A DNA stretch of 45,221 bases from a candidate division SR1 bacterium (lineage in GTDB: Bacteria; Patescibacteriota; Gracilibacteria; Absconditabacterales; Absconditicoccaceae). Made by a program: the position numbers and the translations under genes. Positions 41,518 to 45,221 of this stretch are shown here, piece by piece; within the stretch, counting starts at the first letter, position 1, and each line of letters begins with the position of its first letter. The notes below the pieces were generated by a model that did not search any database, was not told the DNA's origin, and saw only the letters and a list, made by a program, of their open reading frames with translations. The stretch is from contig SKJI01000033.1 of NCBI GenBank assembly GCA_007115995.1, positions 1 through 45,221 of the forward strand, given 5' to 3'.

Positions 41518-41991
41518 TTAATTACTTTTCCAAATAACACTATTATATTTAGGCAACTCTTCAGTTTCTTCTCTTCATTTTTTTTGACATTTTTTACACA
41601 TATTTACCACAGGTATTTCTATTTGTATATTATCACAGAGCCATTTTTCTAAATTAATTGTTTTATTTTTTTTATCAATTTCTAACTCAAACTGATCATC
41701 ATCTTTTTCTCATAAATATGCCTTTGTCTGGATAATTTTGTTAGTAAAAGTGTAGATATAATCTTTTCCACAATAATCACATGTTTGTTTAAGAGGCGCA
41801 TTAATATCAGTAATTTCAACTATTAACTGATCATCACTTAATCATATAAGTAACACAGTAAAACTCATTCATGGATCTTGAATTTGTGGAAGAAATGTTG
41901 AAAACTTGTTAGAAAATTTTAGAGTGTCTTTTACTCACAAATTATGTAATATATCAGAAACTTTAATTATATATCATCAATGAGTACTCAT
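41518..41991 (-). CDS. DUF177/YceD-like protein with a CxxC-CxxC pair
   Basis: A 157-residue protein. IKVSDILHNLGVKDTLKF at the start and the Cys pairs CDYCGKDY and CKKCQKK fit the DUF177 (YceD) family linked to 23S rRNA processing. Normally rpmF follows this gene; it is not found here. The start ATG (41989-41991) overlaps the tilS start in a palindrome, so both leader regions lie in the other gene. The start is backed by the family's conserved first strand following directly. Confidence 0.65.
41980..41991. promoter_or_regulatory. 12-bp palindrome shared by two divergent start codons
   Basis: ATGAGTACTCAT reads the same on both strands, so tilS and the DUF177-like gene both begin ATG AGT ACT CAT (Met-Ser-Thr-His) on overlapping codons. 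Neither gene can have its own untranslated leader free of the other's coding sequence. Confidence 0.85.
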
Positions 41992-43191
41992 AGTTTAGAA
42001 AAGAATATAAATCAGGTAAATTGTACTGATTCTTTAATCAATAACAATACCATCAAAATTTTTTTTGAGAAGTATTCTTCTCTCTTTGCTCAACAAAAAA
42101 AAATATATTGTGCAGTATCTTGATGACCAGATAGTATGTCTTTGTGTCACATACTTACAGAAAAATTTTGAAAAGATCGTATCATAATACTTCATTTTGA
42201 TCATAATGCTAGAAAATGATCACATTGAGATATACAAGTAATTCAAACACACTTTCCTAATCACACTATAATTTCAGAAAAAGCTATAATTCCATGAGCA
42301 AACGAAACGCAATTTAGAAAACAAAGACTTTCTTTTTATAAAAACAATACTCCTCAATGATCAGTAATTTGTACTGGACATACTCTTTCTCATCGTATAG
42401 AAACGACACTTATGAATACATATAAATGATCTTCTTTCTCTTGATTATATGGTATAAGAGAAAAATCACATCTTATTAGTCGTCTTTTTTTTCGTCCATT
42501 ACTTTGAGTAACTAAAAATGAAATTTTAGAATTTTGTCATTCTTTTTCTATTCCTTACTGTATTGATCAGACAAACTTTGATATTACTTATACTCTTAGA
42601 AATAAAATTAGAGACAAAATTAAAAAATATGATAATATAGATCAAAATTTTACACCTTTTTACACTTTTTTTGACACCTTAATCGACAAAACTCTATATA
42701 ATAATATTTGAATATGTAATAATCCATGGCAGATCACCATTTATTCTGTCCGTGTTGATAGTCACTTTTGTTTGCAGGTAGTGCACCATATTTTGCATAT
42801 ATCATGAGCCTCAAAAGATTTTAATGAGCAGCTTTATAGTATAATACAGCATAAAAAACAAACTACTCTTTTTTATAAGTGACGAAATTATTGTATTCAT
42901 CATTGAATCGTATATATGCTTAAATGACCACATATGTTTTGGCAAAAGAAGAAGTATTTACTTTCTGTGCGTGAAGCATGTGTGTTTTTTGGTATAAAAT
43001 GAAATTGATTATGAAAAATTCGTTTTTTTACTCCATGAATAACATGTTTCTGATCTTCTACAAAAATAAAAAAGATGTTTAATTCATATAAAATTCCTGT
43101 TTTTTATAGAAATATTTTACCAATATTTTGAAATAAAAAGGACTATAAAGAATTTCTTCACACACTTTCAAAATCTCGTCAATTTCGATAG
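41980..43191 (+). CDS. tilS: tRNA(Ile)-lysidine synthase
   Basis: A 403-residue N-type ATP pyrophosphatase that makes lysidine at C34 of tRNA-Ile(CAU). PP-loop CAVSGGPDSMSL (SGGPDS at residues 47-52; both Gly are TGA), then HFDHNARKGSHGD, ICTGHTLSHRIETTLM (the family has HxxDDQxETxL; here His-Arg-Ile replaces the acidic pair), ISRLFFRPLLGVTK and a C-terminal half that is weakly conserved (FFGIKGNG, IRFFTPG). The start ATG 41980 lies within a palindrome shared with the divergent DUF177-like gene; no other good start exists before the P-loop. A word cluster falls in the gene at 42647-42680. Confidence 0.92.
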
Positions 43192-44461: not shown

Positions 44462-45221
44462 ATATGATAAAGAAGACGCATAATGTTTGGCCAGTATTTA
44501 AAGTGATATTAGGAGTAATAGCAATATTTTTTTTCATTTTTTGATTTGTTTCTGCTGATGATGTATGTCTTCTTCCTCATGAATTTACACAATCACAAAA
44601 TGCACAATTACAAGATTATTTTATTCAAAACTCGCTATTATTAGATCATTTTGATAGTGAGTTTTTGGTTATTGAAATGGTGCTAGACACTTGTTCTCAT
44701 AATATAGTTATGGCTCATTGGATTAATAGTGACGAAGATTTTCAAGCGAGAACAAGCGATGAAGCTACATGTGACTATATTGCTCTGACGCAAGAATGAA
44801 GACTAACACAATGGGTAAATAAAATATGATGACCTGAAACTTATGTGTGAGAACGTTCTCATCAATTATTGGAACAGAATTTTTTTGAATTTCCTACTCA
44901 TTTTTGAGCAGAACCATTATATGCTACTCCAACGTTTTATATAATTAACCGTCAATGAGAACTTGTAACAACAAAAATTTGAGAGATTCCTTCATTGTTT
45001 TATGAAGTTTGTTTGGACTGAAGAATTTGTTCAGAGAGTAATGTGGGTATCTGACATAATGAGTGATGAACTGCTTGAATATTGAGTTGTTTAACATGAT
45101 ATTGAGACTGAGATGATTGAGACTGAGATGATTGAGACTGAGATGATTGAGACTGAGATGATTGAGACTGAGATGATTGAGACTGAGATGATTGAGACTG
45201 AGATGATTGAGACTGAGATGA
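44462..45221 (+). CDS. Exported protein with thioredoxin-like part and (GDGDD)n tail (runs off the edge)
   Basis: At least 253 residues, incomplete at the right end. The N-terminal helix VILGVIAIFFFIFGFVSA is a signal or anchor. The middle region has TPTFYIINRQGELVTTKIGEIP, which looks like the cis-Pro half of a thioredoxin fold, but the classical CxxC active site is not seen; Cys are found in VLDTCSHN, ATCDY, EVCLDGRICSE and LSCLTG. From residue 214 the protein becomes (Gly-Asp-Gly-Asp-Asp)n, coded by exact 15-base repeats in which two of five codons are TGA. It starts four bases after the pilin-like gene and is probably in the same operon. Confidence 0.7.
45101..45221 (+). repeat. Tandem repeat, 15-bp unit, at least 8 exact copies
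   Basis: The unit ATTGAGACTGAGATG is repeated eight times without a change and one base of a ninth remains at the edge. The unit is a multiple of three, so copy changes keep the frame and alter only the length of the Gly-Asp tail. Confidence 0.98.

What the first reader, a model, noticed from the sequence alone, without database searches (positions are those of the whole stretch)
41980..41991. Two divergent genes begin on one palindrome, ATGAGTACTCAT
tilS (plus) and the DUF177-like gene (minus) overlap head-to-head by 12 bases and both start Met-Ser-Thr-His. Each gene's promoter and leader lie in the coding sequence of the other. Head-to-head overlaps at start codons are rare and would force either leaderless mRNA or promoters in coding DNA, and initiation on one gene could block the other.
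Basis: seen in the sequence. Interest (0 to 1): 0.68.

Follow-up and report, generated by a model that had tools for sequence, protein, structure and literature searches.

The report
Two opposite genes overlapping at starts
In a small, streamlined bacterium two neighbouring genes that point away from each other have lost the gap between them, so their first twelve letters are shared; this is an uncommon but known kind of gene packing, and nothing yet shows that it acts as a switch.

Summary
Read with genetic code 25 (TGA=Gly), tilS (+, 41980-43191) and a yceD/DUF177 gene (-, 41518-41991) share exactly 12 bases, ATGAGTACTCAT, holding both start codons. In the same order the two genes are divergent neighbours in 31 of 41 genomes that have both, usually with a spacer. 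Every choice of ATG/GTG/TTG starts gives an overlap in 2 of 33 divergent pairs examined: this genome and a distant one (G001). Most likely an ordinary divergent pair lost its spacer, so each gene's control region lies in the first codons of the other. This may be tolerated because starts here lack Shine-Dalgarno motifs (3 of 214) and use a loose T-rich, G-poor stretch; yceD has a good one, tilS a weak one. The yceD start is well supported by relatives. The tilS start rests mainly on being the only usual start codon; a rarer start near 42052 is not excluded. The palindrome looks incidental: 7 of 199 ATGN6CAT sites are palindromic, and the 12-mer's other copy is not at gene starts. Mutual blocking is untested. 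Head-to-head overlaps are known but rare.

The parts
41980..43191 (+). tilS, tRNA(Ile)-lysidine synthetase, 403 aa, code 25
   Evidence: aligned with relatives
41518..41991 (-). yceD / DUF177 (PF02620), 157 aa, code 25
   Evidence: N-terminus compared with relatives
41980..41991 (.). 12-bp head-to-head overlap ATGAGTACTCAT holding both start codons, codon-in-register on the two strands
41992..42021 (-). 30 bases upstream of the yceD start, T-rich and G-poor, lying in codons 5-14 of tilS; candidate SD-less initiation region
   Evidence: score 3.47, 66th percentile of true starts (cross-validated), 99th percentile of antisense ATGs
41950..41979 (+). 30 bases upstream of the tilS start, lying in early codons of yceD; weak candidate initiation region
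   Evidence: score 0.01, 27th percentile of true starts (cross-validated), 83rd percentile of antisense ATGs
42020..42047 (-). promoter-like match TTGTTA-16-TACAAT for yceD inside tilS; matches in the region are not above chance in number
41898..41925 (+). promoter-like match TTGAAA-16-TAGAGT for tilS inside yceD; matches in the region are not above chance in number
42052..42054 (+). ATC codon, rival non-AUG start of tilS (would leave a normal spacer of about 60 bp)

Best explanation
tilS and yceD are a long-standing divergent gene pair of this order. In the lineage of this genome (and separately in that of G001) the spacer was lost until the two start regions overlapped by 12 bases. Transcription of each gene starts inside, or at the edge of, the other's first codons, and each mRNA has no leader or a short one copied from the other gene's antisense strand. 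Translation starts without Shine-Dalgarno pairing, at an AUG in a T-rich, G-poor context; that loose signal can sit in AT-rich coding DNA, which makes the overlap tolerable. yceD's signal lies in the variable N-terminal extension of TilS; tilS's signal has to fit the conserved start of YceD and is weak. Shown: the overlap, the gene families, the conserved pairing, the absence of SD motifs, the T-rich stretch. Inferred: where transcripts start, that the stretch drives initiation, that the overlap is near-neutral compaction and not a regulatory device.
For: Divergent neighbours within 1.5 kb in 31 of 41 order genomes in which both genes were found (counted by eye). Overlap under all conventional start choices in 2 of 33 divergent pairs examined: G000 (-12) and G001 (-9 to -24); G019 has a fixed 12-bp gap; G018, G020, G022 and G036 range from overlap to gap depending on the start; three pairs gave no usable yceD start; the other 23 always have a gap. 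yceD starts lie 5-9 codons before the I-K-V-x-D core in nearly all relatives, usually 7; here 8. A 16S tree puts G000 with a member of genus g9 (100/100) and G001 far away, so the two overlaps are probably independent. SD 4-mers before starts: 3 of 214 genes in G000 and 2 of 110 in G001, as in controls. T-rich stretch at -27..-12 both in first genes and in tightly packed same-strand genes. yceD's region scores at the 66th and tilS's at the 27th percentile of real starts.
Against: tilS codons 2-25 look poorly coding (14th percentile of gene starts, 58th percentile of open intergenic frames), and 25 open codons arise at 35% of intergenic positions, so the tilS start is not proven. The tilS start context is weak. 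The tight-versus-loose difference in tilS signal is not significant (p 0.11, 6 against 14 genomes). Promoter-like matches are at chance level. No other genome of the same genus was available, so the overlap could not be followed among close relatives, and the closest 16S relative (G021) yielded neither gene.
Confidence: 0.62

Rival explanations
1. tilS does not start at 41980. It starts at a non-standard codon (ATC 42052, ATT 42058 or similar) or at a start lost to a sequence error, and the pair has an ordinary spacer of roughly 60-70 bp carrying yceD's control region.
For: tilS codons 2-25 have a low coding score; the context of ATC 42052 scores better than that of ATG 41980 (39th against 16th percentile); the spacer would then match relatives at 54-83 bp; similarity to relatives begins near residue 25 in most matches.
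Against: Non-AUG/GUG/UUG starts are very rare in bacteria (general knowledge). N-terminal extensions with only one usable start are seen in relatives: 38, 39, 43, 43 and 45 codons before the SGG motif (G019, G025, G045, G046, G007). In G001 the TilS N-terminus is short (28-31 codons) and still overlaps yceD.
Confidence: 0.18
2. Both mRNAs are strictly leaderless: each transcript begins at or within a few bases of its AUG, with a -10 element inside the other gene and no leader at all.
For: No SD motifs in the genome beyond controls; -10-like hexamers before first genes have their highest single-position count at -12 (12 of 134), the leaderless spacing; yceD has TATATT at -18.
Against: The T-rich stretch also precedes tightly packed same-strand genes, which cannot be leaderless if cotranscribed; -10-like counts are also raised around -39; tilS has no good -10 hexamer at the right distance.
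Confidence: 0.12
3. The overlap is a regulatory device: initiation on one strand, or pairing of the two complementary mRNA 5' ends, shuts off the other gene, so tilS and yceD are expressed in alternation.
For: Promoters this close would compete for RNA polymerase, as reported for activated E. coli bidirectional promoters (PMC12825309, start of abstract and passages read). A 12-nt overlap gives a predicted duplex of -16.8 kcal/mol, and 10-nt leaders would give -48.2.
Against: Most relatives keep the pair without an overlap, so the overlap is not needed for its function; palindromy is not conserved (G001 has ATGATGAGTCAT) and is not unusual; the same paper saw no competition at basal transcription; no expression data here.
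Confidence: 0.05

Closest known systems
Divergent (head-to-head) overlapping gene pairs of prokaryotes
   Same: Two opposite genes sharing their 5' ends; known to be rare: 331 divergent against 12,737 codirectional and 1,890 convergent overlaps in 58 species (PMC2174442, passages read); 2 of 663 overlapping pairs in E. coli (PMC4161906, passages read).
   Different: The shared DNA is only the two start regions, is a perfect palindrome, and lies in a genome without Shine-Dalgarno motifs beyond controls.
Bidirectional promoters with pseudo-symmetric elements (Warman et al., PMC12825309)
   Same: Two start sites close together, so polymerases may compete; plausible for relatives with 50-120 bp spacers.
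   Different: There the two transcripts diverge from one element; here, if the starts are right, the promoters face each other across the overlap. Not demonstrated.
Excludon (overlapping divergent transcripts in Listeria and others; titles and abstract openings seen in a listing)
   Same: Complementary 5' ends of divergent transcripts.
   Different: Excludons, as I recall them, have a long antisense leader and shown regulation; here the overlap is 12 nt plus unknown leaders, and regulation is untested.
SD-scarce bacteria lacking the CCUCC anti-SD, including SR1 RAAC1 (PMC10783764, passages read)
   Same: No Shine-Dalgarno motifs before starts beyond controls.
   Different: This genome keeps CCTCC at the 16S 3' end, the only one of the 26 order genomes whose 16S ends were compared to do so.

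Membership tests
Divergent overlapping gene pair | Two protein-coding genes on opposite strands whose 5' coding ends share bases | tested here: met
   depends on the tilS start at 41980
Divergent overlapping gene pair | Both start codons real (protein or transcript evidence) | not testable with these tools
   yceD start agrees with relatives; tilS start is the only conventional one but its first 25 codons have weak coding signal
TilS (TIGR02432, PF01171) | N-terminal PP-loop domain with SGGxDS motif, score above the curated cut-off | tested here: met
   (122.4 bits against cut-off 93.6)
YceD / DUF177 (PF02620) | Whole-protein score above the Pfam gathering score | tested here: met
   (35.8 bits against 33.2)
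Bidirectional promoter | Symmetric -10 element driving both transcripts | tested here: inconclusive
   matches at chance level
Excludon | Antisense leader of one gene that represses the other | not testable with these tools
   no expression data; only duplex energies computed
Leaderless mRNA | Transcript starts at or just before the AUG | tested here: inconclusive

The most novel reading that the evidence does not exclude
The two start regions form a reciprocal switch: because promoters face each other over 12 shared bases and the mRNA 5' ends are perfectly complementary, only one of the two genes (50S maturation factor YceD or tRNA modification enzyme TilS) can be started at a time on a given chromosome, in a bacterium whose genes do not use Shine-Dalgarno pairing.
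Probability: 0.05. Interest if true: 0.6.

Novelty: new member of a known kind. Interest (0 to 1): 0.3.

Why it matters
Head-to-head overlaps are the rarest class of gene overlap because start signals need room. A case forced by the only conventional starts in two separate lineages of one order, in genomes without Shine-Dalgarno motifs, suggests that loose, T-rich start signals relax that constraint. That idea is testable by comparing divergent overlaps between SD-using and SD-less genomes.

Tried and rejected
Palindrome as a start-site signature: the only other copy of the 12-mer in the genome (G000:C2:44251) does not sit at two starts; 7 of 199 ATGN6CAT sites are palindromic. Rejected.

Other head-to-head overlaps in this genome: two called by my crude gene finder (L066, -21; L117, -99) were set aside by eye. 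The L066 pair looks like RecJ and a pyrophosphatase whose usual start (recalled, MIYVFGHQNPDTDS) lies further in; the L117 plus gene looks like an exonuclease with a later start. The same gene finder did not call the tilS/yceD pair (it did), so its pair counts are rough.

Shine-Dalgarno or sigma-70-like promoter as the explanation: not above controls.

Named relatives: the one genome-contig scan returned 42 loci, mostly distant TilS; its use was naming members of the order, by matching contig lengths: CP006913.1 (RAAC1_SR1_1) equals G042, JAGOPC010000001.1 equals G017, DHYS01000041.1 equals G043, JAHDGZ010000018.1 equals the contig of G024. That the order is Absconditabacterales is recalled, not shown by a call. 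The class-wide profile search was used only to see TilS in 218 of 288 genomes and for the G001 and missing-gene notes.

Literature: searches listed no paper, by title or abstract opening, on this gene pair or on divergent overlaps in this order.

Full report
What is there. The window is contig 16 of a 1.005 Mb, 50-contig genome. Under table 11 its genes are broken by TGA codons; under code 25 (TGA=Gly) they are open. At 41980-41991 lies ATGAGTACTCAT. Reading right it starts a 403-residue protein matching TilS (TIGR02432 2e-35, PF01171 1.3e-31); reading left it starts a 157-residue protein matching YceD/DUF177 (PF02620 9.7e-9). Both proteins begin MSTH because the 12-mer is its own reverse complement.

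Are both starts real? For yceD, yes as far as sequence can tell: a stop lies two codons upstream, the next ATG/GTG/TTG is a TTG inside conserved sequence, and in nearly all relatives the start lies 5-9 codons, usually 7, before a conserved I-K-V-x-D core, here 8. For tilS, 41980 is the only ATG, GTG or TTG between the upstream stop and the SGGPDS motif 46 codons on. The seven relatives with a single usable start have 14 to 45 codons there, five of them 38-45, so 46 is within reason. Against it, codons 2-25 score low for coding (14th percentile of gene starts, 58th percentile of open intergenic frames), 25 open codons occur at 35% of intergenic positions by chance, and the upstream context is weak (27th percentile of true starts cross-validated; 16th without cross-validation). 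A rare non-AUG start such as ATC 42052, whose context scores somewhat better (39th percentile), cannot be excluded; it would leave a normal spacer.

Relatives. In the same order 49 genomes were searched: tilS was found in 44, yceD in 41, both in 41. In 31 of those 41 the two genes are divergent neighbours within 1.5 kb (counted by eye from the tables); in G032 they lie on one strand, and nine others are on separate contigs or further apart. I examined 33 divergent pairs with all conventional start choices, one of them (G023) with genes 3.8 kb apart and one (G033) whose yceD was found only in the later local search. Two always overlap, this genome (-12) and G001 (-9 to -24). G019 always has a 12-bp gap. 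G018, G020, G022 and G036 can be read either way. Twenty-three always have a gap, from 45 bp up. Three (G007, G008, G011) gave no usable yceD start under the motif rule. In a 16S tree of 26 genomes G000 joins G021 of genus g9 with full support, while G001 is far away. Genus g9 also holds G018, G019, G020 and G022, with tight or ambiguous junctions. The simplest history is one loss of the spacer in the g1/g9 lineage and another in that of G001. The G001 junction reads ATGATGAGTCAT; it resembles ours with one codon removed, but given the tree and the short length I treat that as chance.

How starts work here. In about 330 kb of this genome, SD 4-mers precede 3 of 214 starts, no more than in control windows (2 and 6); in 160 kb of G001, 2 of 110 (controls 3 and 7). 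The 16S 3' end of this genome still reads CCTCC, but it is the only one of 26 order genomes compared to keep that core. Instead starts are preceded by a T-rich, G-poor stretch: T 53% against 35% further upstream in 134 first genes, and 46% against 28% in 46 genes lying within 30 bp of a same-strand upstream gene. Its presence in packed genes points to a translational signal. A position matrix of the 30 upstream bases separates real starts from antisense ATGs (AUC 0.85). yceD scores at the 66th percentile of real starts and the 99th of antisense ATGs; tilS at the 27th and 83rd. In tight pairs the tilS scores tend to be lower than in loose pairs, but not significantly (median -0.9 against 2.1, p 0.11, 6 against 14 genomes with hand-picked starts). 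That SR1 genomes are SD-scarce and lack CCUCC is published (PMC10783764, passages read).

Mechanism. The best-supported view is compaction without a special device: a divergent pair whose control regions moved into each other's first codons, tolerated because the start signal is loose and TilS has a variable N-terminal extension. Whether mRNAs are leaderless is open: -10-like hexamers peak at -12 in first genes (12 of 134) but are also common near -39, and promoter-like matches around the junction are at chance (5 against 4.6). Mutual blocking is possible in principle, since the mRNA 5' ends are complementary (predicted -16.8 kcal/mol for leaderless ends) and close promoters compete in E. coli when one is activated (PMC12825309, passages read), but nothing here supports it, and most relatives keep the pair without overlap.

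Palindrome. Of 199 ATGN6CAT sites in the sampled DNA 7 are palindromic, and the 12-mer's other copy in the genome is not a double start. I regard it as incidental.

Compared with what is known. Divergent overlaps are the rarest overlap class (331 against 12,737 codirectional and 1,890 convergent in 58 species, PMC2174442; 2 of 663 overlapping pairs in E. coli, PMC4161906; passages read in both). This is a new member of that known kind. My searches listed no report of this pair.

Noticed in passing
L073 and 16S loci L074-L098: The anti-Shine-Dalgarno core CCTCC at the 16S 3' end is kept in 1 of 26 order genomes compared (this one) and altered in the rest, for example CCTCT, CCTTT, CCACC, CCATT.
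   Followed up: partly
window and sampled stretches of G000 and G001: A T-rich, G-poor stretch at about -27..-12 precedes starts in place of Shine-Dalgarno motifs, also before tightly packed same-strand genes.
   Followed up: partly
44464-45219: The last open frame runs off the contig end in a simple repeat encoding Gly-Asp-Gly-Asp-Asp units, which probably broke the assembly.
   Followed up: no
L022 / G001:C1:350118-351119: The G001 TilS frame is only 326 residues long, and the profile match runs past its end through one TAG and one TAA, so its C-terminal part may be degraded or frameshifted.
   Followed up: no
G003, G009, G014, G021: Four order genomes lack detectable tilS and yceD together, including the closest 16S relative G021; contig gaps or real joint loss.
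   Followed up: no
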